Of a DNA stretch of 34,000 nt, positions 6,704 through 18,781 are shown piece by piece. Under the pieces are notes generated by a model. The model was not told where the DNA came from. It did not search any database and was given only the letters and a program-made list of their open reading frames with translations. The first letter of the stretch is position 1; the number at the start of each line of letters is the position of its first letter. Source of the DNA: Kangiella sp. (GTDB lineage: Bacteria; Pseudomonadota; Gammaproteobacteria; Enterobacterales; Kangiellaceae); assembly GCF_014762745.1 (NCBI RefSeq), contig NZ_JABURJ010000116.1, positions 1 to 34,000 of the forward strand, written 5' to 3'. The position numbers and the translations under genes are program-made.

Positions 6704-6763
6704 GTTAGAAAACCCCCATTGGATTGAGGGCTTGAGCATCGCATGAACTCAAGGAAAGAATAA

Positions 6764-6779
6764 TTAGGGAAATCCCCTA
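6764..6779 (-). promoter_or_regulatory. Palindromic site upstream of S8 protease 1
   Basis: On the minus strand TAGGGGATTTCCCTAA, about 60 bp before the protease ATG. It shares TAGGGG-(A/T)4-CCC with sites before the other two S8 genes. Extra half-site-like copies of TAGGGA follow on the plus strand (6780-6792), so several protein units might bind. The dyad centre lies 28 bp from a weak -10-like TGCGAT, placing it near -41. Confidence 0.6.
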
Positions 6780-6814
6780 GTAGGGATTAGGGAGGATACC
6801 TGTAGCTTTATAGA

Positions 6815-7213
6815 TTATATTCCTCGATAACCAGCAATCAAGCCAAATATTACAGAAGTAATAAAGGCAATAATCGAACCATATACACCAAAAGGCATTA
6901 AGGCGCTTGTATTCCCAGAAAATAAAAAAAGGACTGTGATTATGGAAATAAAAAAACCTGAGATTATTGCTATAAATACTAGCGTTACTACATTTAGCAC
7001 ATACTTTTTTTTCAAAGGCTTTATTATCATAAAATATAAAAGCAAAGTTGATGCGTAAGTAATGGCTAATGTAAAAGCGACAAAAATATCAACCACCCAG
7101 CTACGAGATTCCAAAAATATAAGGAGAAGGTAAACAATGATACTAGTAGCCAAAGGTGACATGGCCAAAGCAAGTTTTTCTCGCTGACTTGTAGTGTTTG
7201 AATTAAAAGTCAT
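6815..7213 (-). CDS. Small four-helix membrane protein of unknown function
   Basis: The 132-residue product has a short hydrophilic start and four predicted membrane helices (about residues 17-37, 41-62, 75-98 and 108-128), with a KKK cluster between helices two and three. I do not recognise the family. It begins 3 bp after the response-regulator stop, which argues for co-transcription and possibly translational coupling, although no strong Shine-Dalgarno is visible. It is more A+T-rich than its neighbours, as expected for membrane helices rich in Ile and Phe. Its place at the end of a signalling operon suggests a membrane accessory to the sensor or an output protein; this is inference. Confidence 0.8.
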   Translation of the reverse strand: MTFNSNTTSQREKLALAMSPLATSIIVYLLLIFLESRSWVVDIFVAFTLAITYASTLLLYFMIIKPLKKKYVLNVVTLVFIAIISGFFISIITVLFLFSGNTSALMPFGVYGSIIAFITSVIFGLIAGYRGI

Positions 7214-7216
7214 AAA

Positions 7217-7855
7217 TTAAACCAGTAAATTATGCTTTGCTGCATAGCGAACCAACTCGGCAGTATTGGAAACACCCAGTTTTTCCAACACTTTGCCGCG
7301 GTGGTTTTCCGCGGTTTTGACACTGATGTCGAGTGCCCGGGCAATATCTTTGGTAGTTTTGCCATCGACCACCAGATGAAAAACTTCGCGCTCCCGCTGG
7401 GTTAAATTTTTGTAAGGGTCCTGCCACTCTTTGTCTGGCTGAGAGTACTGGGTCGCCAGTACACTGGCAGCGTATTGGCTGTAATAAGTTTTACCGCTGG
7501 CCAACGCTTTCACCGCGTCAATTAGCTCTTCACTGGCGCTGTCCTTTAATAAATAGCCAGAAGCACCAGCTCGTACCATATGAATCACATATTCCTGTTC
7601 TTCATGCATGGTCAGAACCAGAATCTTACACTCAGGCAATTTGTCATGTATGCGCTTTACAACCTCCATACCATTCAGTTCGGGCATCGAAATATCAATA
7701 ACCGCCACCTGGGGTCTGGTTTCCAGGGCTTTTTCCACTGCCTCAATGCCATTGGAAGCTTCGGCAACAACAGTACAATCGGCATCTTTGCTTAACAGGC
7801 TGACCAGGCCCTGTCTTAGGATGGTGTGGTCATCCGCCAGCATCACACGAATCAT
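7217..7855 (-). CDS. NarL/LuxR-type response regulator
   Basis: The 212 residues form a receiver domain (1-120) with the acidic pair D8/D9, phospho-acceptor D54 (VAVIDISMPELNG), T82 and K104, followed by a LuxR-type helix-turn-helix (about 150-207; LTQREREVFHLVVDGKTTKDIA). It should be a DNA-binding transcription factor activated by phosphorylation. Its ATG overlaps the TGA of the histidine kinase gene by four bases (ATGA at 7852-7855), so the two are almost certainly a cognate pair. NarL-family regulators bind short inverted repeats, and the TAGGGG-(A/T)4-CCC palindromes before the three nearby S8 protease genes are the obvious candidate targets (inference). I do not assign a specific gene name. 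Confidence 0.95.
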   Translation of the reverse strand: MIRVMLADDHTILRQGLVSLLSKDADCTVVAEASNGIEAVEKALETRPQVAVIDISMPELNGMEVVKRIHDKLPECKILVLTMHEEQEYVIHMVRAGASGYLLKDSASEELIDAVKALASGKTYYSQYAASVLATQYSQPDKEWQDPYKNLTQREREVFHLVVDGKTTKDIARALDISVKTAENHRGKVLEKLGVSNTAELVRYAAKHNLLV

Positions 7856-8595
7856 GTTAGAGCGCCTCCTTCACCTATGGAGCCAGTTATAACCACTTTG
7901 ATTTCACAGCCCTCTCCTGGTTGAGATTCAACCATTAATTGACCGCCAAATGCTGCAACCCGATCTCGCATCGCTGATAACCCAAATCCTTCAGCCGATT
8001 CAGATGTTTCTTTGGTCATTCCCACACCATTATCCTTAATCTTAAGCACTAGCATTCGCTCAGTTGCAATTACGGTAATGTCTATATGAGTGGCATGTGC
8101 ATGTTTAATCGCATTGGTAATCGCCTCTTGCACCACTCTAAAAACCAGGGTTTGAGTTTCGTCATCAAGATTGACTGATAACTGTTCATGCAAATCAATC
8201 TTGATCGAGTTCTTTTCACCCATCACCCGCGATAACCATTGCAACGCCGGAATTAGCCCCAGATCGTCGAGTATCCGCGGTCGCATCAGCCGTGAGATTT
8301 CACGAGTATCGCTAAGCGCCTGTCTTGCCAGATTTAAAGCTTCATCAAGTTCTTTCGGATCCGGCTGGCCCTCCTTGTACATTTGTTGCAATTGGTTGAT
8401 TAAGGCGGTTAATAGCTGGCCTACTCCATCATGCAATTCACGAGCAATATACTTTCTTTCATCTTCTTGAACTCGCCACACGCGTTTAGCCAGAGTACGC
8501 ATTTGTTGATTGCCGGTGAGTAGCTCCTGGGCAATTTTCTGCTGCTTCTGGCTAAGTTCATTGACCAGATCAGAAATATCTTTTTCGCTATTCAT
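7852..8595 (-). CDS. Soluble NarX/UhpB-type histidine kinase without sensor domain
   Basis: The 247-residue product starts with a likely coiled coil (about 5-45), then a HisKA_3 dimerisation domain with phospho-acceptor H55 (RELHDGVGQ) and a HATPase domain with N box (N161 in AITNAIKHA), G1 box (DNGVGM, 188-193) and GFGLSAM (203-209). There is no transmembrane helix and no PAS, GAF or HAMP sensor domain, so it is a cytoplasmic catalytic module that must take its input from another protein. Its ATG lies inside the end of the Ser/Thr kinase gene (8-bp overlap) and its stop overlaps the response-regulator start. Both physical overlaps suggest that the Ser/Thr kinase or FHA-GAF protein supplies the sensory input. 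Confidence 0.94.
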   Translation of the reverse strand: MNSEKDISDLVNELSQKQQKIAQELLTGNQQMRTLAKRVWRVQEDERKYIARELHDGVGQLLTALINQLQQMYKEGQPDPKELDEALNLARQALSDTREISRLMRPRILDDLGLIPALQWLSRVMGEKNSIKIDLHEQLSVNLDDETQTLVFRVVQEAITNAIKHAHATHIDITVIATERMLVLKIKDNGVGMTKETSESAEGFGLSAMRDRVAAFGGQLMVESQPGEGCEIKVVITGSIGEGGALT

Positions 8596-11500
8596 TATTC
8601 ACACTGAGCTCCATTAAGTCATCATCAAAAGCAACAATGTTTTGTTGTTCTATAAATGCCGAATGAGAACCTTCCGGCAGTTGCTTTAACAGATGATTAA
8701 GTTGTTGTTGTGCTCGTTGGCGATATAGTGATGGTGATTCACCTGACTGTTCTACCAGTAAAGCGCGCAGGCGATTCAGTTGGAAGCTTCTCCAATAGTC
8801 GCCCATTCTGCGCATGAGTTGATCAGCCTGATTTAGTGTCTGTTCCATTTGTTGCCAGTCGTTATTGATAAAATAATAGGACGACTCCAGTTCAAGCAAA
8901 TAGATGTGCTCGTATTGATGAAGTGTCAAATCATACTGTCGAATTTTCTGGGCCAGCCCCGGAAACTCCTCAGTATTGAATTTGAGAACTCTCCTCGCCT
9001 GATCCAGAAAGTATCGAAGCTTGGTGGCTTCAGGAATATTGGTCGTATCAGACATTTCAGCCAGATACTGTTCAGAATCCGTAACCTCGTTCGAGCGCAA
9101 AAGCAAAGTTTGATAATAAAACTGCTGTTCGGCACTAGCTTTTTCTATGACCAGTTCATGAATAGACTCAAGCTGTTTCTGAAGTGCATCAAGGCTACCG
9201 GTTAACGAATGCCAGTCTGCTAGCCAGAGTCCAAACTCGATAACGCCTCGAATATCATTACGCTGCTGCAATTGTTGATATAAAGATTCAAGCTTGGGTA
9301 TGCTCTGTTCAAAATTACCCTGTAAAAAACTCAACTTTGCCAAATATGCTTCTGCAACCAGAGCCTCTTCAAATAGGCCTAAATCCTTAGAGTCCTGTAA
9401 CGCTTTTTCAAAAATAAAATAGGCGCTGCGCCAGTTGCCCATTGCCAGCTCCATCTGTCCGAGATTTTCACGAACCCGGATGACTCCAACTGGATCCTGG
9501 ACTTTTTGATAGGCCTGTTCTGCCTGCTGCCAGTAGACTAGTGCATTTTCAGGGTTCGACAGCAAATAGTAGATAAAGCCGATATTGTTCATACTTTCAG
9601 CTTTAAGCCACTCATCACCGAGATTGATACGCAAAGATAATGCCTGACGATAATTGTCAAGAGCCGTTTCATACAAGCCCTGCTCTTCGGCTAAAACGCC
9701 CAGTTCGTTGTAGGCATTAGCTTTGCCTTCGTTGTCGTTGAGAGTCTCATAAACGGCTAGACTCTGCTCCAGATATTGCGTTGCTTCAGCATGCTGGCCC
9801 TGGATTGAGTGCACACTGGCAAGGTTAGACATGCTGGTAGCCATACCATTTTGATCATCGGCTTCGTTTCGTTTAAACAAGCCCTGCTGATAATAATCTT
9901 GTGCCAGTTCCAGATTGCCCAGACGTTGATAAGCAACTCCCATGGCATTTAGCACATCACCTTCTAAACTGACGTCTTTCAACTTTTTAGCAATAACCAG
10001 TGCTTTAACCAAATAGTCGTCCACTGCCGTTTGTGCATCACCAGACCAGATTGACACTTTCGCAAGCTCAAACCAGGCGCTGGGATGATTAGGATCCAGC
10101 GCGACGATTTGTTGCAAAGCCTCCTCAGCTTTAGGGAACTGCTGCGTTGTAATATAAAGTTCCGCCAATGAGAATTTAATATCAATATTTAAGGGGTATT
10201 GTTCAACCAGCTCTGCATAAACTGCTTCTGCCTGGTCAAACTTTTCAGCAAGTTCATTTAAAATTGCGGTTGAACTTAAATGAATAAAACTTTGTGCAGG
10301 ACTTAAAGATTGAGATTGTGCAAAGGCACTCTCCGCCTGCTGAATGTCACCGGTATTTAAATAGACCTGACCCAGCTCAAACCATAAATATTCAGAATCC
10401 GGTTGAGAATTAATTAGTTCTGTAAGTTGGGTCGCTGCCTGTTGCCACTCGCCCTGCTTAATTAACTCTTGCACGCCACTCTGTAAAATAAAACCGGTAC
10501 TGCTCTCAGTAGGGACTTCCTGTTCAATTCTGAGCTGTTGATTGAGCTCTAAAGCCAATTGTCTTACCAATGAGTCTGCAGAATCACGCTGCATAGCTAC
10601 GTCAGAAAGCTGCTGTCGGTTAATCGTATTGCCCGCGATAGATAAGACTTCTACGATCAAAGTATTTTCGTTACTGCCAGAGGCAATCACCTTAGCACTT
10701 ATGACTTTATCGACTTTTAACAGGTCGGCGATCAACAACAACTGATTGTCGGTCAGCGTAGATTGATAACCTAGCAGATCAAGTGTTTCAAGCACGCGCT
10801 CATTATTGACCAGTCTTAGCCTGGGGTTCTGAGCTAATTGATAATTAAGATAATCAGGTATTCCATATTTGACCCAGTTGTCAATTGACTGACCTCGCGT
10901 TTCACTCTGTATCGGCAGTATAGCCAAGGATGTGTATTGAGTTGCAGGTAAAGGTTGCGCCTGATAACGCCACCAGAAAACAAACCCCAGAATCATCAGA
11001 GCAACAGCGGCAACTAAACCAAAGGTCTTGTTTGACCTTATTTTGGGAGCTTGTTTAATAAGCACATAATCGATGGCTAGTTGCAAGTCTTCCGCTGACG
11101 AATAGCGTGTTTGGGTGTAAGGAGATATCAGTTTTAGCACCACTGGCTTGAACTTCTTAAACGCCTTACGAGTTACGGGAAAGTCGTTGGTGCCTTTTTG
11201 TTTTTGCTTAATCAGCTCCTCAAGAGTATTGGCATCATAGGGTAAACAATTGCACAAAATTTGATAAAGAATGACACCAACCGCATAAAGATCGATGCTA
11301 CTACTGATCTCATTCTTCTGTAGATATTCTGGGGGTAGGTATTGCGGTGTACCACTGATGATGCCTTGCTCTTTTGACTCGGATAAAACGGCCAGTCCGA
11401 AATCTGCCAGATACAACTGGTCATCGTTATCTATAAGAATATTTTCAGGCTTAATGTCACGATGATAAATGTTATGACTTTCTGCAAAGCTTAGGGCGCC

Positions 11501-11950
11501 CGTGATCTGAGAGATATAGAGTTCGACCTTGCTTTCTGAAAATGACTCTCCGGAATCACTGTTGCGCTGTAACTTTTGCTCAAGGCTTTCTCCTTCAATC
11601 CAGTCCATGGTGAAAAAATGCAGACCCTGATCAGAATAGTACTCATGCACGCGAACGATATTAGGATGAGAAAGCTGCCTGAGAAGGAGAATTTCTTTTT
11701 TAAAGTCAGCAAGAGCCTGCTGATTTTTGGATATGAAAGAATGCAGGACTTTTAGCGCAACGGTCACATCTAGCTGCAAGTCTTTTACTTTGTAGACGGC
11801 TCCAAATCGACCTACACCCTGTAACTTTTCAACTTGGAAACGTCCAGCCAGAAGGGTTCCAGTTTCAAGAATGTCAAAGTCTTCAATTACTTGAGTCTTT
11901 GATAAGTCCCCAGAATCATTTTGGCTTTGCTTCGGGTCATCATTCACCAT
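8588..11950 (-). CDS. Transmembrane Ser/Thr protein kinase with extracytoplasmic TPR sensor region
   Basis: The 1120-residue protein has an N-terminal Hanks-type kinase domain (about 35-295) with an intact active site: glycine loop GVGRFGAV (45-52), K67 (VALKVL), catalytic D165 in HRDIKPEN, D183 of DFG, and PPEYL in place of APE. One membrane helix follows (about 309-328), so the rest should lie in the periplasm. Residues about 340-450 (SLAILPIQSETRG onward) resemble the FlgO/CadC-like domain often placed after such helices. From about 475 to 880 there are tandem tetratricopeptide repeats, then a less regular helical region to the end. This is the PknB-like topology of cytoplasmic kinase plus external sensor, but with protein-binding TPRs. 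It follows the FHA-GAF gene by 20 bp and overlaps the histidine kinase gene. AAGG lies about 10 bp before the ATG. No PP2C phosphatase gene is nearby. Confidence 0.95.
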   Translation of the reverse strand: MVNDDPKQSQNDSGDLSKTQVIEDFDILETGTLLAGRFQVEKLQGVGRFGAVYKVKDLQLDVTVALKVLHSFISKNQQALADFKKEILLLRQLSHPNIVRVHEYYSDQGLHFFTMDWIEGESLEQKLQRNSDSGESFSESKVELYISQITGALSFAESHNIYHRDIKPENILIDNDDQLYLADFGLAVLSESKEQGIISGTPQYLPPEYLQKNEISSSIDLYAVGVILYQILCNCLPYDANTLEELIKQKQKGTNDFPVTRKAFKKFKPVVLKLISPYTQTRYSSAEDLQLAIDYVLIKQAPKIRSNKTFGLVAAVALMILGFVFWWRYQAQPLPATQYTSLAILPIQSETRGQSIDNWVKYGIPDYLNYQLAQNPRLRLVNNERVLETLDLLGYQSTLTDNQLLLIADLLKVDKVISAKVIASGSNENTLIVEVLSIAGNTINRQQLSDVAMQRDSADSLVRQLALELNQQLRIEQEVPTESSTGFILQSGVQELIKQGEWQQAATQLTELINSQPDSEYLWFELGQVYLNTGDIQQAESAFAQSQSLSPAQSFIHLSSTAILNELAEKFDQAEAVYAELVEQYPLNIDIKFSLAELYITTQQFPKAEEALQQIVALDPNHPSAWFELAKVSIWSGDAQTAVDDYLVKALVIAKKLKDVSLEGDVLNAMGVAYQRLGNLELAQDYYQQGLFKRNEADDQNGMATSMSNLASVHSIQGQHAEATQYLEQSLAVYETLNDNEGKANAYNELGVLAEEQGLYETALDNYRQALSLRINLGDEWLKAESMNNIGFIYYLLSNPENALVYWQQAEQAYQKVQDPVGVIRVRENLGQMELAMGNWRSAYFIFEKALQDSKDLGLFEEALVAEAYLAKLSFLQGNFEQSIPKLESLYQQLQQRNDIRGVIEFGLWLADWHSLTGSLDALQKQLESIHELVIEKASAEQQFYYQTLLLRSNEVTDSEQYLAEMSDTTNIPEATKLRYFLDQARRVLKFNTEEFPGLAQKIRQYDLTLHQYEHIYLLELESSYYFINNDWQQMEQTLNQADQLMRRMGDYWRSFQLNRLRALLVEQSGESPSLYRQRAQQQLNHLLKQLPEGSHSAFIEQQNIVAFDDDLMELSVNNE

Positions 11951-11970
11951 TGAAGCTTAACCTTATAGAG

Positions 11971-12867
11971 TTAATGCACGAGTTGTAATATCGGTTTATT
12001 TAACAGGCTATCATAACTTCTTGATTCTGGCACCCGATTCATGAGTTTGGTTATTTGATTCTGTAAAACTATGGCTTCAGAACTGAGTGTGATTTGCTGA
12101 CTGATAATCGACAAAATATCCATGTCCAGTTCAGTTAATACTTTGCTAGATTCCTTACTGTCGGTATAAACCACTCCCACTAGTTGGTTATCAGAAAATA
12201 GTGGAACACAGGCAAGTGCTGCAATCTGTTTGCGTTGAACACTCTCACGCTTAGCCAACATAGCATCCTGACTGACATCCATTGCTACCACAGGATTAGC
12301 GCTATTAATCGCTTTCATCATAGCGCCAACACTGCCTTCGAAAGAGCGGTTATCAAAGTCAGCTGGCGACATACCTAATACTGCACCTACTTTTAGACTT
12401 TGAAAGTCATGGCCAAGCATCACAAGACCGCGCTGAGTTCCCATCAGACTGATCACTGAATTAAGCTGCTCCTGCAGTGTATCTGCAAGCATATCGTCAG
12501 CTAGATGATTAATAGATTTACTCTGTTCCAGCCGCCAGTGATTATGTGACTCAATGGCTTTAAGCTGTTGCAATGTCTTGGCTTCAAATAGGCAATCTAC
12601 ATCGCCTACAGAGATCAGCTCATTGCCATTCAATAAACTGGCTTCGACTTTGACGCCATTGACTTTAGTGCCATTTTGACTGGCCTGATCATTAAGATGC
12701 CACCCATCAGCGAGATGCGACATTAGCGCATGCTGCCTGGAAACGGTTGGATGCTTTAAAACTAGATCGCAGGAGCTAGCCCGACCAATACGATAGTTGG
12801 ACTGCTCATAGAGAAATGCTTCTGTTGCAGGTTTGTCTGAATAACAGACTGTAATCTTAGCTGGCAT
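11971..12867 (-). CDS. FHA-GAF domain protein
   Basis: The 298-residue cytoplasmic protein has an N-terminal forkhead-associated domain (about 1-95) with the phosphothreonine-binding residues in place: G28-R29 (YRIGRASS), S43-R44-H46 (TVSRQHA) and N65-G66-T67 followed by N70-G71. A GAF domain (about 125-270; GLVMLGHD, ALACVPLFSDNQLVGVVYTDS) and a short helical tail follow. FHA domains read phosphothreonine, so the natural ligand is the autophosphorylated Ser/Thr kinase encoded 20 bp downstream; the GAF domain could bind a small ligand or mediate dimerisation. It sits 16 bp after the secreted-protein gene, within the same operon. Function beyond domain level is inference. Confidence 0.92.
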   Translation of the reverse strand: MPAKITVCYSDKPATEAFLYEQSNYRIGRASSCDLVLKHPTVSRQHALMSHLADGWHLNDQASQNGTKVNGVKVEASLLNGNELISVGDVDCLFEAKTLQQLKAIESHNHWRLEQSKSINHLADDMLADTLQEQLNSVISLMGTQRGLVMLGHDFQSLKVGAVLGMSPADFDNRSFEGSVGAMMKAINSANPVVAMDVSQDAMLAKRESVQRKQIAALACVPLFSDNQLVGVVYTDSKESSKVLTELDMDILSIISQQITLSSEAIVLQNQITKLMNRVPESRSYDSLLNKPILQLVH

Positions 12868-12883
12868 AGTCGGCTAGTTATGG

Positions 12884-13720
12884 TTAGTTAACAAGACGCA
12901 AGCTGAACCTTAACGTATTTGCATACGCAATCAGCTCACCAGCGACATTATCAATATCACGACTGGAGCGCCAGACATCTGGAATATCGTCAGGATCAGC
13001 CAGCTCAATAATTCTGCTAAACTCATCCACCTTATTACTGGCAAGTGTATAGTTTTGCGCCGTAATTAGTTGTTGCACCTCATTCAGTTTACTACTCAAC
13101 TGATTATAAAGAATCGGCTCAATTTGGGTTGAGAACCCGGCAAGACTGTTGCTCAGACGGTTGTACTTGGTATTCACTACGGTAAGAACCGGTCTTAAAT
13201 CCGCAACAATCAAAAACTGAGAAAACTTACCGGTAGTACCGCGAGCACGGTAACTGCCTGAGCCCATGGTTGCGGTAATATCTTCAAACTGACCATTTAG
13301 AGGTGCCTTAAAGAATCGCAATGGTGTACCCGGCAAATACTCCAAGTTATGGGTGTGAATATCTACCGTAGCCAAGCCCGAAAAGGCAAAGCCCTGATTT
13401 GAGGGTGGCTCAATGGTGATCAACATTGGAAAAGCTGCCAATAAATTGACATCCAATAAATTTGGTAAACGGTTTAGAATGCTCAAATCAGTAATATCGA
13501 TTATTTCGGCTGAAATACCGATATTGTCTGCGGTTAAGCCAACGGAGTTTTCGAAAGTCAAAGTTAAATCAGCTGATACGTTCCCTGTAAGATTGATTAC
13601 TGCTTCAACTTTATTGCCTTGAACCGTCAGTTCCACAGGATCTGCCTTGCTGGCAATTGATCCCACACTCAAAAATAAAACGGTTACGCTTAAGGCTAGA
13701 GCTTTAAAAGCTGTCATCAT
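12884..13720 (-). CDS. Secreted protein of unknown function, first gene of the signalling operon
   Basis: I do not recognise a family. From the ATG pair at 13720/13717 the product (278 or 277 residues) has a clear signal peptide (MMTAFKALALSVTVLFLSVGSIASKA, cut near ADP). The ORF extends 30 codons further upstream, but those residues precede the signal, and AGG sits 5-8 bp before the ATG pair, so the shorter start is chosen. The mature part is beta-strand-rich to about residue 205 (for example VEAVINLTGNVSADLTLTF), then helical with a heptad-like stretch (LNEVQQLITAQNYTLASNKVDEFSRIIELA). No cysteines or catalytic motif stand out. As a periplasmic or exported protein co-transcribed with a kinase that has an external TPR region, it is a candidate ligand or regulator of that kinase (inference). 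Confidence 0.85.
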   Translation of the reverse strand: MMTAFKALALSVTVLFLSVGSIASKADPVELTVQGNKVEAVINLTGNVSADLTLTFENSVGLTADNIGISAEIIDITDLSILNRLPNLLDVNLLAAFPMLITIEPPSNQGFAFSGLATVDIHTHNLEYLPGTPLRFFKAPLNGQFEDITATMGSGSYRARGTTGKFSQFLIVADLRPVLTVVNTKYNRLSNSLAGFSTQIEPILYNQLSSKLNEVQQLITAQNYTLASNKVDEFSRIIELADPDDIPDVWRSSRDIDNVAGELIAYANTLRFSLRLVN

Positions 13721-13754
13721 CACTACCTCGCAACGTGAGAGAAATATTTCATTA

Positions 13755-13783
13755 GATATAACTAATGGAATATACAAGTTCAA
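13755..13783 (-). promoter_or_regulatory. Candidate promoter of the signalling operon
   Basis: On the minus strand TTGAAC (13778-13783), 17 bp, then TATATC (13755-13760); each hexamer matches consensus at four of six positions. The expected leader is about 30 nt. No TAGGGG palindrome is present here, so the operon does not appear to share the protease regulatory site. Judged by eye. Confidence 0.4.
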
Positions 13784-13833
13784 AATACTTAAATTTATGC
13801 ATTTAAGCAAGAATGCTTTGCGATAAATTGAAT

Positions 13834-13859
13834 AAAAAGTAGGCTTCCCTGCCTACTTT
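13834..13859 (-). terminator. Rho-independent terminator of S8 protease 2
   Basis: GTAGGC (13839-13844), 6-nt loop, GCCTAC (13851-13856), extended by three A-T pairs, ending in TTTTT on the minus strand. It lies about 65 bp beyond the protease stop and isolates that gene from the signalling operon promoter that follows. Confidence 0.85.
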
Positions 13860-13922
13860 GCTCGTATTATCAATAAACGTTAACATCTAGGTTAAAGTAA
13901 ATTATCCGTACAACTTGCTAAC

Positions 13923-16388
13923 TTATTGATAGTACGAATCGTAAAAACGTCCGATCAGAACCGCATACTCGGCACGACTCACTGTACTATCGGGCTCAAA
14001 GTAAGCTACTAATGTAGGCTGCAGATCAAACGGGCCCTGCTCCACTTTGAAGCTCACGCCAATAATGGATAAGTCTAAAGCCAACTGAACATAGCCTCGC
14101 AAATGTGCTGGAATCTGATCCTGGTCTAATACAGGTACGCTTTGACCATTGTAGTCGACCGTAATGTCACCACTAAAGGCTTCTGCCTGCTCCTGCAAGC
14201 CAAGGCTTTGCACTAAAGAGTATGCCAGCTCTACTCTGCCCACTTCATCGTTAGGACGGAATTTAGCACCATCAGTTAACATAACAGCCCCCTGCTCCTG
14301 AACTCGGTCTTTTAACGCACCGCCAGTAGCACTAACTGATTCGGCAAATGCTGCCATCTCACCACTGACGTCACTAAAACTAACCTGCTCCTGATTCAAT
14401 AAATCACGGTATTGACGTACTGCTGCGCCCATCACCAGATACTGGGCCAATTCTTTACGCTTCAAAGCGCGATCAGGACGGAAGAACTTATCATTAAAGC
14501 TGTCCACTAAACGCTCACTGGTCGCAAACTGGATGGCGTTCTCTGCTGGATGACCTGCGATGTCATCAAGACCTTGATAACCACCTGAGGTGAAGATGCC
14601 GATCTCTCCGCTCACAATTTCAGGAACACCGGGGCCGTTCGTTGTGCCTGTAGGGTCAGCCTCGACACCTGACAACGAAGTCAAACCATAGGCTGATAGC
14701 TTCCATGTACCTTCCTGTGCTGGAGCCGATACACGCATAGAGGTGGTTAACACTGGTAAAGTAAGATTACCGAAATACTCAGTACCATCAGGAGCTTCCA
14801 GCTTTAACTTAATGGTATTTGCCAAAGACTCAGCAGAAGCAGAAATCCATACCGCATCAGGCCCTACGGTAAACTCATGAACTTCAGGCTCGCCCACAGG
14901 CGAGTAAAGCACTTCGAACGCTTCAGGCGCGGCTGGCGGAAGCACAATGGCATTGCCATTGAAAGTATTCAGGTTATTGACCGTTACCTTATGCTGAGGG
15001 TCATAATTGAGCGCTGCAGCAACCGCCGCATAGGCATTCACATATCCTGCACCAACTTCCCACTTTTCGTAGCCAGGCATGTTGGTTGCGGTTTCCTGAA
15101 TCAAACGTTTGGTTTCAAGCGGAGTCAGATTAGGGTTTGCCTCAAGCATCAGAGCAATAACGCCGGCCACGTGCGGTGTAGCCATTGAAGTACCTGATAT
15201 CATGGTGTAGTAAGGCACATACTCGGTTTCAATCGCTTCAAGATCGGCCTCGCCACCATTTGAGACCAGGTTAGTAGTGGCGCGAGTTGAAATAATATCA
15301 ACACCCGGAGCAACAATGCTTACTTCATTGTTGTAGGTCCACTCAGTTCCGTCAGGCATGGTAAAAGTGCCGGTTTCATCACGCTTGCCGCGAGAAGAGA
15401 AATCGATCAAAGTACCTTGTTTAGTACCTGCGCCAACAGACATGCCCCAAGGGATCTGCGCGTATGGGTTATGGGTATCTTCGCCAGGACCACTGTTGCC
15501 AGCAGCGAAAACTGAAATCATGCCCAGCTTATAGGCTTTATAAGAGGCCACAGAAATTGGACCCTCTGGCTCATACTTGCCACTGGAACCCCAGGAATTA
15601 CTCATCACGCGAATCGGTGAATTGAAATCGTAGATATGAGTAATGGCATAATCATATCCACCCAGAGCATCCAAAATAGATAAGCCAGCACCAGATCCGT
15701 AACCGACCAGTTCTGCATCTGGAGCTGCGCCTTTGTACTTACCATCTGAGTTAGTACCCCAGCCAGCAACCGTTCCCGCACAGTGAGTACCGTGGCCAAC
15801 ATTCAAGTCGGTATTTAATTGACCCTCGATCCAGACTCCATCTACCGGCGTTAATGACAAGGCCTGAGCATGAGCAATGGCCTGAACGTTCTCGACTACT
15901 TTTGACCCGTATTCAAGATCAGCCAGAGTCGCATCAATACCTGAATCGTTGACCATAACGGTAACGCCTTTACCGGTAAAACCAATACCGTTTTGCTGCA
16001 CGAATTCATCACTTTGCAACTTTTCAGCACCAGTAAGCTCGCGAGCTTCAGCATTGAAATATTTAAGACTGCGATTGGCAAACACAGAACGGACACCATC
16101 CATTTTGCTGATTTGTTCAATCTGTAGTGGCGTTGCTACAACACCAATAATTGGCAAAGATTTAAACTGAACGCCGTCAGTGATGCCTAAATCCATAAGT
16201 GCCTGGATTTGCTCAGGTGCCAATTGATCAAGCTGGTCAAATGTTACCACTGCCATTGTGCTGTCAGTGATAGACATGGTTTGTAAGCTCTGCTGCAGTT
16301 CCGAACCGATGACCGCCTCTGCTGCGGCATTCAGGCTAAAGCCAGCCAATGTCGCAGCCAGCGCTAGTCGCTTGATTTTTGTGTTCAT
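13923..16388 (-). CDS. Secreted subtilisin-like serine protease with SLH-like tail (paralog 2)
   Basis: The 821-residue exported S8 protease has the same architecture as the gene at 4241-6703. The ATG at 16388 gives the signal peptide MNTKIKRLALAATLAGFSLN ending near AAAEA, with AAAGGGG about 10 bp upstream; a start 15 codons earlier would put charged residues before it. Propeptide about 35-115; catalytic D148 (VNDSGID), H199 (GHGTHCAG), oxyanion Asn in AAGNSGPG and S401 (SGTSMATP); a beta-sandwich region; then three SLH-like repeats (about 603-821; GHPAENAIQFATSERLVDSF, FRPDRALKRKELAQYL, FRPNDEVGRVELAYSL). All catalytic residues are intact. The partner with which its tail would associate in a Gram-negative envelope is unknown. 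It has its own terminator and its own copy of the palindromic site. Confidence 0.93.
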   Translation of the reverse strand: MNTKIKRLALAATLAGFSLNAAAEAVIGSELQQSLQTMSITDSTMAVVTFDQLDQLAPEQIQALMDLGITDGVQFKSLPIIGVVATPLQIEQISKMDGVRSVFANRSLKYFNAEARELTGAEKLQSDEFVQQNGIGFTGKGVTVMVNDSGIDATLADLEYGSKVVENVQAIAHAQALSLTPVDGVWIEGQLNTDLNVGHGTHCAGTVAGWGTNSDGKYKGAAPDAELVGYGSGAGLSILDALGGYDYAITHIYDFNSPIRVMSNSWGSSGKYEPEGPISVASYKAYKLGMISVFAAGNSGPGEDTHNPYAQIPWGMSVGAGTKQGTLIDFSSRGKRDETGTFTMPDGTEWTYNNEVSIVAPGVDIISTRATTNLVSNGGEADLEAIETEYVPYYTMISGTSMATPHVAGVIALMLEANPNLTPLETKRLIQETATNMPGYEKWEVGAGYVNAYAAVAAALNYDPQHKVTVNNLNTFNGNAIVLPPAAPEAFEVLYSPVGEPEVHEFTVGPDAVWISASAESLANTIKLKLEAPDGTEYFGNLTLPVLTTSMRVSAPAQEGTWKLSAYGLTSLSGVEADPTGTTNGPGVPEIVSGEIGIFTSGGYQGLDDIAGHPAENAIQFATSERLVDSFNDKFFRPDRALKRKELAQYLVMGAAVRQYRDLLNQEQVSFSDVSGEMAAFAESVSATGGALKDRVQEQGAVMLTDGAKFRPNDEVGRVELAYSLVQSLGLQEQAEAFSGDITVDYNGQSVPVLDQDQIPAHLRGYVQLALDLSIIGVSFKVEQGPFDLQPTLVAYFEPDSTVSRAEYAVLIGRFYDSYYQ

Positions 16389-16440
16389 TAATACACTACC
16401 CCTTTGGTTTAAAATAAAGTTACGCCTTACCATTCATTGC

Positions 16441-16456
16441 AAGTCATTTTTGACTT
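16441..16456 (-). promoter_or_regulatory. Small hairpin in the presumed leader of S8 protease 2
   Basis: A perfect 6-bp inverted repeat, AAGTCA-TTTT-TGACTT, lies between the palindromic site and the ribosome binding site. On the minus strand no T run follows, so it is not a terminator. It could be a second operator or an mRNA-stabilising stem. Confidence 0.35.
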
Positions 16457-16487
16457 ATTAACTATCGGTGCAATTACTCAGATTGCA

Positions 16488-16504
16488 TCAGGGAAAACCC
16501 CTAA
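16488..16504 (-). promoter_or_regulatory. Palindromic site upstream of S8 protease 2
   Basis: On the minus strand TTAGGGGTTTTCCCTGA, about 100 bp before the protease ATG, matching TAGGGG-(A/T)4-CCC. The dyad centre is 28-29 bp from the -10-like CGATAG/GATAGT, the same geometry as at S8 protease 3. Confidence 0.62.
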
Positions 16505-16544
16505 CCATGAATTGAAACTATTTGTAATTATTTTTGTGGGAATA

Positions 16545-16569
16545 TAAAAAAGAGGGCCCGAAGGCCCCC
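16545..16569 (-). terminator. Rho-independent terminator of S8 protease 3
   Basis: On the minus strand GGGGGCC-TTCG-GGCCCTC-TTTTTT: a G+C-rich stem closed by the stable UUCG tetraloop and followed by six Ts, about 20 bp after the stop codon. Confidence 0.93.
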
Positions 16570-16587
16570 AACGCCTCTCACGAGCAG

Positions 16588-18648
16588 TTACTGGATCAGG
16601 TTCGACACCTCTACATCAATTGTGTAGTCAGTCGAAACGCTGATATATCCATTGACTCTCAGGGTATAGTCACCACCCTGTTCAGGTCGGAATGAAATTA
16701 CTTCGGGGTTATCTAGGGAAGCACTGCTGGCTACAACAGTACCGCTTGAGTCCAGAAGCTGGAAGTCGAGGTCAGCTACACCACCCCAGCTAAGCACTGC
16801 GTCAATAGCTACAGCATTGTCGCTGACGGTGATGACATGGTCATTGAACTGAATATTTTCCGCAGAAGGGCCAATATTACCCTCTATGAGCTGCTGCTCA
16901 GTCGTAATTGAAGTACCATTATCAACCAGCTGACCATCCAGTTTCAGGCCGTCAAAACTGATAGTACCTTCAACGTTTTTGATAGAAAGGCTGTGTACCT
17001 GCGACGTATTTAAGTCGCGTAACACAAAAGCCTTTGTTGCGGACTCCGGGGAATAGAAATCGATAACCCCTTTACTTTGGCCATTCAGGAAAACCTCGCC
17101 ATGGCCACCTTTTTTGTTAGCGGTATAGAGAACTTGAATACTGTCACCAATGAAGTTGAACATGACTTCAGCATTGTTACGACGACTTTCCAGGTAAGTT
17201 CCATCAGTGCTCTCAGTATCTGACTTAGTGCTCCAGCGAGATACATAGTCAATCATAGAGTCGTTCTCAGAAACCACTTTCCAGTTGCCTTGGGATGACC
17301 ATTTTGTTTCACCAGCCAGGAACTCAGCACGTTTACCTTCAGTAACACGAGCAAGCTCTACAGCTGCTTTAACATTGATATAGCCGCCTCCGACTTGATG
17401 GAACTCATAGCCTTCCATGGGATCAGCAGTATCACGAATAATTTCTTCAATCTGGTCAGGAGATAAATCGGGATTAACTTCAAGTAACAAGCCTGCAACA
17501 CCAGCAACAAATGGCGTGGCCATTGAAGTACCACTCATACCGGCGTAATAGACGTCATATTCAGGGTATTCTGGGTCAAGAACTGGTCCTAATAAAGGTA
17601 AGGCTGTATTCAAAGCTTTAGTAGAAATGATGTTACTGCCAGGCGCTGTTACATCAGGAGCTTTGAACTCGTCACCAGCAACACCACGACTTGAGAAGCT
17701 CGCTAAATCACGGTCTTCAGTTCCTGCTGCAACGTTAATGGTCCAAGGAGCAACACCATAAGGATTCAGCGTGTTATCGCCCGGGCCATCATTGCCCGCC
17801 GCAAAAGTAACTATGATGCCTTGCTTATAAGCTTCATAAGATGCCTGATTCGTAGGATTGTTTGGATCAAACTCTGCGCCACCGGCACTCCCCCAACTGT
17901 TGGTGATAACATCGATGCCATATTTCTCTTTATTGCCTATGGCATAATCAAAACCAGCCAAGGCATAAAGAATCGAAATAGCATCACCAGCACCGATACC
18001 AACCATGGTTGCATCAGGCGCGATACCGTCATGATAATTAGCGCGGCGAGCATCATCGGCAGAAGCTGCACCAGTACCGGCAACTGTGCCAGCCACATGA
18101 GTACCATGACCGGAGCTGGTATCACTGTTAGGAACTCCTTCAAGGAAGAGATTTAAGCCGCCAGCAAGATCCAGATCGCCAACAATTTTAACGTTCTGTA
18201 CCACTTTTGAACCCAGCTGCAAATCAGGATGTGTCGCATCAACACCGGAATCAAGTACAGCGATGGTTGCACCGCGGCCTGTGACATTTTCAACATCATG
18301 CACATAATGGCCGCCAGTGATTTCACCAGAGTTGTAGTTGTAATACTTTAATGGCGCATCGTAGTAAATACTTTTCACGCGCTCATCTTTGGCAAGCGAA
18401 TTAATTTGTGCTTTAGTGAGAGTTGCTCCAGCCATTGGAAGCGTTTTCATCGCTAGGTATGGCTGACCAAGGTTAGCCATGACATCATTCAATTGTGATT
18501 GGTCATGGGTAGTTACAATAACTTTGGTTGGCGTCAACGCTGTAGGTAACATTTCTGTTAACTCAGGTCCAATAATTGCGTCTGCGTGAGCGGTCCCTGC
18601 TACGGCTGCCAAAACACTGGCTGTGATAATCGATACAGTTGGTTTCAT
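16588..18648 (-). CDS. Secreted subtilisin-like serine protease with PPC-like tail (paralog 3)
   Basis: The 686-residue exported S8 protease begins at the ATG at 18648 (MKPTVSIITASVLAAVAGTA, cut after HADA), with GAGG 8 bp upstream; the ORF extends 33 codons further, through the regulatory site, which cannot be coding if the promoter is where it appears. After an I9-like propeptide come D133 (LDSGVD), H181 (GHGTHVAG), oxyanion Asn in AAGNDGPG and S375 (SGTSMATP). The C-terminal half differs from the other two paralogs: a beta-sandwich domain (about 470-590) reminiscent of carbohydrate-binding folds, then a prepeptidase-C-terminal-like domain (about 605-686; DLDFQLLDSSGTVV, GDYTLRVNGYIS). There is no SLH-like region. 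Own promoter site and strong terminator indicate a single-gene transcript. Confidence 0.93.
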   Translation of the reverse strand: MKPTVSIITASVLAAVAGTAHADAIIGPELTEMLPTALTPTKVIVTTHDQSQLNDVMANLGQPYLAMKTLPMAGATLTKAQINSLAKDERVKSIYYDAPLKYYNYNSGEITGGHYVHDVENVTGRGATIAVLDSGVDATHPDLQLGSKVVQNVKIVGDLDLAGGLNLFLEGVPNSDTSSGHGTHVAGTVAGTGAASADDARRANYHDGIAPDATMVGIGAGDAISILYALAGFDYAIGNKEKYGIDVITNSWGSAGGAEFDPNNPTNQASYEAYKQGIIVTFAAGNDGPGDNTLNPYGVAPWTINVAAGTEDRDLASFSSRGVAGDEFKAPDVTAPGSNIISTKALNTALPLLGPVLDPEYPEYDVYYAGMSGTSMATPFVAGVAGLLLEVNPDLSPDQIEEIIRDTADPMEGYEFHQVGGGYINVKAAVELARVTEGKRAEFLAGETKWSSQGNWKVVSENDSMIDYVSRWSTKSDTESTDGTYLESRRNNAEVMFNFIGDSIQVLYTANKKGGHGEVFLNGQSKGVIDFYSPESATKAFVLRDLNTSQVHSLSIKNVEGTISFDGLKLDGQLVDNGTSITTEQQLIEGNIGPSAENIQFNDHVITVSDNAVAIDAVLSWGGVADLDFQLLDSSGTVVASSASLDNPEVISFRPEQGGDYTLRVNGYISVSTDYTIDVEVSNLIQ

Positions 18649-18749
18649 GGTTTGGTCCTCGTAGTCAAAAATAATAATTATTTGGTTTCGACTACGACTA
18701 TGCACAAATCCAACGAGATCAGATATTAGGTAAAGCCCCCAGATCATGC

Positions 18750-18763
18750 AGGGGTTTTCCCCT
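18750..18763 (-). promoter_or_regulatory. Palindromic site upstream of S8 protease 3
   Basis: On the minus strand GTAGGGGAAAACCCCTGC, containing the perfect palindrome AGGGGAAAACCCCT, about 100 bp before the protease ATG. The dyad centre is 28 bp upstream of TAATAT, a good -10, which places it near -41, the usual position for an activator that replaces the -35 element. This is the most symmetrical of the three sites. Confidence 0.65.
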
Positions 18764-18781
18764 ACTTAAATAATGCACAAT

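What the first reader, a model, noticed from the sequence alone, without database searches (positions are those of the whole stretch)
6764..18763. Shared TAGGGG-(A/T)4-CCC palindrome before all three S8 protease genes
The sites at 6764-6779, 16488-16504 and 18750-18763 match at TAGGGG-W4-CCC in the same orientation, and lie about 60, 100 and 100 bp before the chosen ATGs. In the best case (18750) the centre is 28 bp from TAATAT, that is near -41, a classic activator position. I saw no fourth copy in 34 kb. The flanking sequences are otherwise unalike, so the motif is not just leftover from gene duplication. The nearby NarL-type regulator is the obvious binder; ACCCCTA/TAGGGGT also resembles the heptamers bound by NarL relatives.
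Basis: partly seen in the sequence, partly recalled or inferred. Interest (0 to 1): 0.75.

Follow-up and report, generated by a model that had tools for sequence, protein, structure and literature searches.

The report
Shared palindrome before three protease genes
The same short DNA palindrome stands in front of three secreted-protease genes, its exact core occurs nowhere else in this marine bacterium's genome, and its conserved placing marks it as the likely docking site of the response regulator encoded between those genes.

Summary
TAGGGG-(A/T)4-CCC occurs three times in the 2.79 Mb genome, once before each S8 protease gene; the reversed control occurs 0 times. The window is Kangiella-like. 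Its cassette (S8, DUF6689, FHA-GAF, Ser/Thr kinase-TPR, histidine kinase, NarL-type regulator, S8) recurs in six further genera, and without nearby S8 genes in Aliidiomarina. Of 77 S8 upstream regions, 77 match TAGGGGNNNNCCCCTA at 9 or more of 12 positions and 71 at 10 or more; medians of 29 permuted controls are 5 and 0. A -10-like hexamer starts best 32 nt after the palindrome centre, inside and outside Kangiella, placing it near -43.5. A second, mostly weaker copy lies about 23 bp away in Kangiella-type promoters. A promoter model gives three strong places in each of 12 regulator-bearing genomes, all at the cassette (pre-filtered). Most likely the cassette's regulator activates these proteases from these sites. 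Binding, activation and signal are inferred, not shown.

The parts
6764..6779 (-). S8A promoter: main palindrome TAGGGGATTTCCCTAA (10 of 12 to TAGGGGNNNNCCCCTA), predicted centre -43.5
   Evidence: relatives
6787..6802 (-). S8A promoter: weak distal partner CAGGTATCCTCCCTAA, 23 bp upstream
   Evidence: 7 of 12; offsets of 22-24 bp in relatives
6735..6740 (-). S8A predicted -10 element GATGCT, 32 nt after the palindrome centre
16488..16503 (-). S8B promoter: main (distal) palindrome TAGGGGTTTTCCCTGA
16465..16480 (-). S8B promoter: weak proximal partner TGAGTAATTGCACCGA, 23 bp downstream
   Evidence: 6 of 12; same offset in relatives, 6-9 of 12 in the Colwellia and Pseudoalteromonas regions printed
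16436..16441 (-). S8B predicted -10 element TGCAAT, 32 nt after the proximal partner's centre (less certain than the other two)
18749..18764 (-). S8C promoter: main (distal) palindrome TAGGGGAAAACCCCTG
   Evidence: 11 of 12
18726..18741 (-). S8C promoter: proximal partner TGGGGGCTTTACCTAA, 23 bp downstream, in the activator position
   Evidence: 8 of 12; TAGGGGCTTTACC in three clade relatives
18697..18702 (-). S8C predicted -10 element CATAGT
   Evidence: identical in all 12 Kangiella S8C promoters
4241..6703 (-). S8A, subtilase with a signal-like N-terminus (target gene)
   Evidence: PF00082; start chosen by N-terminus and relatives
13923..16388 (-). S8B, subtilase with a signal-like N-terminus (target gene)
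   Evidence: PF00082
16588..18648 (-). S8C, subtilase with a signal-like N-terminus and a C-terminal PPC domain (target gene)
   Evidence: PF00082, PF04151
7217..7855 (-). NarL/FixJ-type response regulator, presumed binder of the palindrome
   Evidence: PF00072 + PF00196; Asp54 and the KTAENHR stretch of the HTH invariant in 7 aligned orthologues
7852..8595 (-). HisKA_3 histidine kinase without a recognised sensor domain, presumed partner
   Evidence: PF07730 + PF02518; His55 invariant in 6 aligned
8588..11950 (-). Ser/Thr kinase, hydrophobic stretch (by eye), TPR domain; presumed upstream signalling protein
   Evidence: PF00069 + TPRs; Lys67, Asp165, Asp183 invariant in 6 aligned
11971..12867 (-). 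FHA-GAF protein, presumed phosphothreonine-reading adaptor
   Evidence: PF00498 + PF01590
12884..13810 (-). DUF6689 protein (likely start near 13720), the cassette's marker gene
   Evidence: PF20396

Best explanation
The palindrome is the operator of a small, nearly private regulon. A dimer of the phosphorylated NarL-type regulator (7217-7855) binds the 16-bp palindrome centred about 43 bp before the transcription start, just upstream of the -35 region, and recruits RNA polymerase to a promoter with a poor -10. In Kangiella-type promoters a second dimer probably binds a partner site about 23 bp away (roughly two helical turns); either copy may be the stronger. The regulator is presumably phosphorylated by the adjacent histidine kinase, which may in turn be steered by the membrane Ser/Thr kinase-TPR protein and the FHA-GAF adaptor. 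The output in Kangiella is the three secreted subtilases and, as far as these searches reach, little else. Shown: the sites, their conservation and fixed spacing, and their concentration at the cassette. Inferred: binding, activation, and the order of the signalling chain (the weakest step).
For: Three exact sites in 2.79 Mb, all before the three S8 genes, 0 control matches. 77 of 77 S8 upstream regions score 9 or more of 12 and 71 of 77 score 10 or more; medians of 29 permuted half-sites are 5 and 0, base-shuffled regions give 0-1 of 77 in 20 rounds, and a spacer of 4 is best of 0-10. A -10-like hexamer scores best at +32 from the centre in Kangiella plus one Pleionea promoter, and again in 42 promoters (12 gene-by-genus groups) outside them. 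A second site at 23 bp is best of 50 unsigned offsets over 19 groups. A promoter model gives 36 places with E of 2.6e-5 or better, three in each of 12 regulator-bearing genomes, all in the cassette; the best in the 8 genomes without the regulator is 0.067. The regulator is the only protein with a recognised DNA-binding domain among the cassette proteins scanned. The place agrees with two regulators of this family: NarL at ogt (centred -44.5) and CrbR at acs (-52 to -36).
Against: No binding, footprint, transcript start or expression datum exists here. Regulator and proteases are present together or absent together (12 and 8 of 20 genus genomes, one of the 8 only 55% complete), so no genome tests proteases without the regulator. 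The -10 elements are weak; 4 of 7 clade-2 Kangiella S8A promoters are off by one and the S8A of G110 does not fit. The 23-bp partner is missing in Alteromonas and Planctobacterium, is not among the ten best offsets of a one-sided half-site test outside Kangiella, and in the signed test offset -14 scores higher (4.43 against 4.00), though a shift of 14 matches two letters by self-overlap. The model search scored at most 150 of 263-790 first-look candidates per genome, so weaker targets may be missed. No palindrome was found before the DUF6689-to-regulator operon of the own genome; one Kangiella genome has a 10-of-12 match there, within a longer inverted repeat. Activation rather than repression rests on position and weak -10s.
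Confidence: 0.75

Rival explanations
1. The palindrome is a genuine operator for the protease genes, but of another DNA-binding protein encoded elsewhere; linkage to the regulator is coincidental.
For: No binding data. The own genome has a second NarL-type regulator (35% identical), and three clade-2 genomes carry an exact site before an unlinked lipoprotein gene (one of the three products matches CC0125).
Against: Sites accompany the cassette in seven genera with S8 genes, and where no S8 gene lies nearby, in Aliidiomarina, sites stand before the DUF6689 operon. Seven of the 8 genus genomes without the cassette regulator have other NarL-type regulators yet no strong match to the promoter model (best E 0.067).
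Confidence: 0.1
2. The same regulator binds the site, but represses the proteases until a signal releases it.
For: A palindrome abutting -35 can block polymerase; by the inferred start the site spans about -51 to -36.
Against: Regulators of this family activate from this position (NarL at ogt; CrbR at acs), and the -10 hexamers are far from consensus, as expected for activator-dependent promoters.
Confidence: 0.11
3. The palindrome works in RNA, as a hairpin (6-bp stem, 4-nt loop), for example a terminator or attenuator.
For: The complete form could fold into a stem of six pairs.
Against: It lies about 30 bp upstream of a conserved -10-like hexamer, outside the predicted transcript; departures from the consensus are one-sided and would break pairs. 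No fold was computed.
Confidence: 0.03
4. Chance resemblance, or leftover from duplication of one ancestral promoter.
For: The three proteases are paralogues (about 37-45% identical over aligned parts).
Against: The flanks of the three paralogues are unlike by eye, while the site and the -10 spacing persist over genera; permuted motifs and shuffles give far fewer.
Confidence: 0.01

Closest known systems
E. coli NarL 7-2-7 sites, especially the ogt promoter (PMC7419079, passages)
   Same: NarL-family regulator; 16-bp inverted repeat of two 7-mers with 2 bp between; site centred at -44.5 next to -35; two sites at one promoter.
   Different: Half-site letters differ (TAGGGGN here; TACYYMT for NarL, recalled). 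The two sites are about 23 bp apart here and 33 bp at ogt. Different kinase and targets.
Staphylococcal NreC of NreABC (PMC8139620 and PMC5694512, passages)
   Same: NarL-type regulator that binds a GC-rich palindrome; a GAF protein in the system. The NreC motif as I recall it, TAGGGN4CCCTA (from no call), is close.
   Different: Targets are nitrate and nitrite genes; NreB carries an iron-sulphur sensor, none recognised here; no Ser/Thr kinase or FHA protein described in the passages; the recalled motif is 14 bp, here 16.
CrbS/CrbR and the ACTU motif of Pseudomonas (PMC5715377, passages)
   Same: LuxR-family regulator; conserved imperfect inverted repeat at -52 to -36 found by comparing promoters; activation depends on it.
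   Different: Sequence such as TACTACCATCGTCGAAT; acetate genes; hybrid kinase with a symporter domain.
MctS/MctR (NCBIfam best match, below its cut-off)
   Same: Best-scoring NCBIfam family for both the regulator and the kinase core.
   Different: 203 of 300 and 152 of 700 bits needed; the kinase matches only profile positions 233-449 of 457, so MctS's N-terminal half is missing here.

Membership tests
NarL/FixJ response regulators | receiver domain plus LuxR-type (GerE) helix-turn-helix | tested here: met
   PF00072 and PF00196 above cut-off; VraR, NarL, DesR and DevR are the top solved full-length chains
NarL/FixJ response regulators | conserved phospho-acceptor aspartate and acidic pocket | tested here: met
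   Asp8, Asp9, Asp54, Lys104 invariant in 7 aligned orthologues
NarL/FixJ response regulators | binds the proposed DNA site when phosphorylated | not testable with these tools
   needs gel shift or DAP-seq
NarL 7-2-7 operators | two 7-mers in inverted repeat, 2 bp apart | tested here: met
   spacer of 4 between TAGGGG and CCCCTA is best of 0-10: 71 of 77, against 31, 23 and 32 for spacers 3, 5 and 6
NarL 7-2-7 operators | heptamer TACYYMT | tested here: not met
   half-sites are TAGGGGN; the NarL consensus is recalled
NreABC systems | histidine kinase with N-terminal PAS/iron-sulphur sensor | tested here: not met
   only HisKA_3 and HATPase families found, with about 45 residues before them
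NreABC systems | GC-rich palindromic operator | tested here: inconclusive
   TAGGGGNNNNCCCCTA is a GC-rich palindrome, but NreC's own site letters were read in no call
HisKA_3-type two-component pairs | HisKA_3 kinase with phospho-accepting His beside a NarL-type regulator | tested here: met
   PF07730, overlapping genes; His55 invariant in 6 aligned
MctS/MctR | score above the NCBIfam equivalog cut-off | tested here: not met

The most novel reading that the evidence does not exclude
A previously undescribed private signalling system of marine gammaproteobacteria: a membrane Ser/Thr kinase with TPRs and an FHA-GAF reader feed a sensor-less histidine kinase and its NarL-type regulator, which through one or two 16-bp palindromes at fixed places switches on a handful of secreted proteases (or, where these are missing, another secreted protein or the cassette itself). 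Two dimers about 23 bp apart, with strong and weak site exchangeable, set each Kangiella-type promoter's response.
Probability: 0.5. Interest if true: 0.65.

Novelty: new member of a known kind. Interest (0 to 1): 0.52.

Why it matters
It gives an exact, testable operator and promoter layout for a regulator for which my paper searches turned up no description, and ties a mixed Ser/Thr and His kinase cassette (its marker DUF6689 is named in no paper of the held library) to secreted proteases in several marine genera. With three promoters as the main predicted output in Kangiella, it offers a clean test of how Ser/Thr and His kinases might be coupled.

Tried and rejected
One-mismatch scan for further targets: no better than the reversed control in the own genome (27 against 29). 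Two further exact TAGGGGNNNNCCCYR matches in the own genome, 117 bp before a 444-aa protein with a signal-like start and 162 bp before a 129-aa protein, are not among the model's places and were dropped; their conservation was not tested. Looking for proteases without the regulator as a natural experiment failed: the 13 of 394 order genomes with an S8A/S8B relative at E up to 1e-90 are all among the 17 with a DUF6689 match (one search scored only the best 2 candidates per genome; one of the 17 is below the family's cut-off). Six written forms of the palindrome are in 0 papers of the library, DUF6689 in 0. Searches on Kangiella/subtilase, Pseudoalteromonas protease regulation and motif words listed nothing on this system, but only 10 of 115, 12 of 15, 10 of 18 and 10 of 25 papers were listed. 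The Bacillus licheniformis NreBC paper was searched for its site and gave none. CrbR was considered because its paper contains TAGGGG, but its motif differs. The RNA-hairpin reading was set aside by position; no fold and no structure prediction was run.

Counting notes. Of 95 S8 upstream regions, 18 from seven loci of genomes already held were dropped before the count of 77. The 77 are not independent (19 gene-by-genus groups; one Alteromonas group alone holds 10 loci). With 200 bp one region, L199 S8B, scored 6; with 220 bp it passes. The S8A gene of G003, cut by the contig end, is not in that count but has the site. The best permuted controls are ATGGGG 54 and 15, AGGGGT 35 and 4, TGAGGG 33 and 9, TGGGGA 25 and 10. 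In some searches I set clade-1 S8C in the proximal register, which by itself adds to the 23-bp signal there. In one search I set further S8B and S8A promoters in the shifted register. The -10 at +32 is also best in register 0 alone. The -10 score matrix was typed from general knowledge of sigma-70 promoters and is approximate. Model R1 has a shortened calibration, so its E-values are rough.

Full report
1. The observation. Within the window the pattern is exact at these three places only. In the whole own genome (2,788,120 bases, 146 contigs) it is exact at the same three places and nowhere else, and the reversed control is absent. With one mismatch the count is background, 27 against 29 for the control, so the signal is in the exact form.

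2. Surroundings. The sites stand before three S8 proteases with signal-like N-termini. Between them lie DUF6689, an FHA-GAF protein, a Ser/Thr kinase with TPRs, a HisKA_3 histidine kinase without a recognised sensor domain, a NarL-type response regulator and a small protein without a family match; fatty-acid and housekeeping genes lie on either side. The regulator is the only one of the cassette proteins scanned that has a recognised DNA-binding domain.

3. The genus. 12 of 20 genomes of the genus, the own one included, hold an orthologue of the regulator (82% identity or more), and the same 12 hold S8C-like proteases. The other 8 hold neither; one of these (G002) is only 55% complete. Exact pattern matches number 34 in the 12 and 4 in the 8, with reversed-pattern controls of 7 and 3. 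By place, 30 of the 34 lie at the cassette. Of the other four, three stand before an orthologous lipoprotein gene (one of the three products was scanned and matches CC0125), and one lies inside a gene. Five S8 promoters of the 12 genomes miss the exact form by a letter (G019 S8C, G014 S8C, G009 S8A, G005 S8A and S8C). Contig records of the same length name several of these genomes as Kangiella, for example K. aquimarina.

4. Other genera. A scan with a DUF6689 alignment found 30 loci: Kangiella 6, Pseudoalteromonas 2, Colwellia 4, Cognaticolwellia 1, Pleionea 1, Alteromonas 12, Planctobacterium 1, Aliidiomarina 3. Scanned for TAGGGGNNNNCCCCTA at 10 or more of 12, these loci of up to 21 kb show 72 hits, of which 56 are listed near an S8 start. 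Of the other 16, nine lie close to S8A in Alteromonas, three before DUF6689 and four elsewhere. In all, 95 S8 upstream regions were collected; after removing copies from the same genomes 77 remain, of which 77 reach 9 of 12 and 71 reach 10 of 12 within 220 bp. For the 29 other arrangements of the half-site letters the medians are 5 and 0; the highest, ATGGGG, shares the GGGG/CCCC core and reaches 54 and 15. Base-shuffled regions give 0 or 1 at 10 of 12. A spacer of 4 gives 71; spacers 3, 5 and 6 give 31, 23 and 32; the rest 0 or 1. A further cassette (G110, regulator 61% identical) has sites at 10 and 9 of 12 before its two S8 genes. Where no S8 gene is nearby, the site is elsewhere: before DUF6689 in three Aliidiomarina genomes (L206 and L207 at 10 of 12; L179 at 9 by my count), and 57 bp before a small protein gene with a signal-like start in Alteromonas indica (L209). 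In Alteromonas with S8 genes, a further site stands 61 bp before a similar small gene in L196 and L202 and 138 bp before one in L204; the other six such loci were not looked into.

5. Promoter layout. With sites aligned on the proximal copy, the Kangiella promoters and one Pleionea promoter (36 in 7 groups) score best for a -10-like hexamer whose first base is 32 nt after the palindrome centre. For this I had placed clade-1 S8C in the proximal register. Repeated on 42 promoters (12 groups) outside Kangiella and Pleionea, with no register choice, +32 is again best, about 3.6 standard deviations above the mean of offsets. Over all 19 groups it is best with register 0 alone and with two registers. 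Exceptions: 4 of 7 clade-2 S8A promoters fit at +33, and the S8A of G110 does not fit. Taking the first -10 base as -12, the palindrome is centred at -43.5 and spans -51 to -36. A second, usually poorer copy lies about 23 bp away: 23 is best of 50 unsigned offsets (5.57 against a mean of 3.48, sd 0.60). The partner scores 5-10 of 12 in the Kangiella, Pleionea, Pseudoalteromonas, Colwellia and G110 regions printed, but 1-5 in Alteromonas and Planctobacterium. Against it: in the signed test -14 scores higher than -23 (4.43 and 4.00), though a shift of 14 matches two letters by self-overlap; and in a one-sided half-site test outside Kangiella 23 is not among the ten best. In a gapped alignment of 29 promoters from four genera the last T of the -10 is invariant. 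These 29 were chosen from 77, and 10 put in the shifted register, by me.

6. For the third gene (S8C) the strong palindrome is the distal copy. The copy in the activator position is TGGGGGCTTTACCTAA (18726-18741), TAGGGGCTTTACC in three relatives. The conserved -10 is CATAGT (18697-18702), identical in all 12 Kangiella S8C promoters, while TAATAT is TAATAC or CAATAC in three of the five clade-1 genomes. The start would be near 18690.

7. Genome-wide specificity with the whole promoter. A sequence-only model of 74 positions built from the 29 promoters was searched in 20 genus genomes. It gave 36 places with E of 2.6e-5 or better, three in each of the 12 regulator-bearing genomes, all in the cassette. 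The next best anywhere is 0.004, and the best in the 8 genomes without the regulator is 0.067. The search scored 150 of 263-790 first-look candidates per genome, so weaker places may be missed. Promoters of 8 of the 12 genomes went into the model; the 4 held out (G003, G005, G007, G019) also give three each. In G005, which lacks S8B, the third place is an orphan promoter between S8C and DUF6689. The main predicted Kangiella regulon is therefore three promoters, plus possibly the lipoprotein gene in three clade-2 genomes.

8. Mechanism. The best account is a dedicated two-component output: phosphorylated regulator dimers bind the palindrome beside -35 and activate weak promoters, in Kangiella-type promoters probably with two dimers about 23 bp apart. 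Precedents for the position are NarL at ogt (-44.5, with a second site at -77.5; passages of PMC7419079) and CrbR at acs (-52 to -36; passages of PMC5715377). Shown: sites, spacing, conservation, concentration at the cassette, and invariance of the key catalytic residues of regulator, histidine kinase and Ser/Thr kinase in 6-7 aligned relatives. Inferred: binding, phosphorylation, activation, and any role of the Ser/Thr kinase and FHA-GAF protein in steering the histidine kinase; the last is the least certain.

9. Comparison. In layout the operator is NarL-like (7-2-7, 16 bp), in letters it is not. Staphylococcal NreC binds a GC-rich palindrome (passages) and I recall its motif as TAGGGN4CCCTA, but no call gave me its letters, and the kinase here lacks a recognised sensor part. 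Six literal spellings of the palindrome were not found in the held library, nor was DUF6689; most subscription papers are not in it. I rate it a new member of a known kind with an unusually clean, nearly private regulon.

Noticed in passing
window 16441-16456: A second inverted repeat with perfect arms, AAGTCA-N4-TGACTT, lies between the S8B operator pair and its ATG, overlapping the predicted -10 by one base; the arms are kept in all 5 clade-1 Kangiella genomes and in G010 and G018. Possibly the site of another regulator.
   Followed up: no
window about 13760-13800 (minus strand), before DUF6689: A separate conserved element, by eye roughly CTTGC-N8-TAAA...AGTATTTTGA, stands before the DUF6689-kinase-regulator operon in the Kangiella genomes; the own genome has no TAGGGG palindrome there, so the operon seems to be controlled differently.
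   Followed up: no
L104 2407, L107 3648, L108 3449: In three clade-2 Kangiella genomes an exact palindrome with conserved surroundings precedes an unlinked lipoprotein gene (L104's product matches CC0125): a lineage-specific candidate target.
   Followed up: partly
L099 11010 (G005): G005 lacks the S8B gene at the cassette but keeps an S8B-like promoter with the palindrome between S8C and DUF6689.
   Followed up: partly
L193 9547 (Pleionea mediterranea): Two palindromes 23 bp apart (TAGGTGAAAACCCCTA, then TAGGGGTTGATCC) lie about 440 bp before DUF6689 with no ORF start close by; perhaps an unannotated small gene or a relic.
   Followed up: no
L196 19492-20034, L202 19335-19892 (Alteromonas): A protein of about 180 aa with a signal-like start, next to S8A, has its own near-perfect (L196) or perfect (L202) palindrome 61 bp upstream; its position's counterpart in A. 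indica has no Pfam match.
   Followed up: partly
window 6815-7213: A 132-aa protein after the regulator has no family match, is only 44-47% identical in three close relatives and was not detected at the cassette in the others, much less conserved than its neighbours.
   Followed up: no
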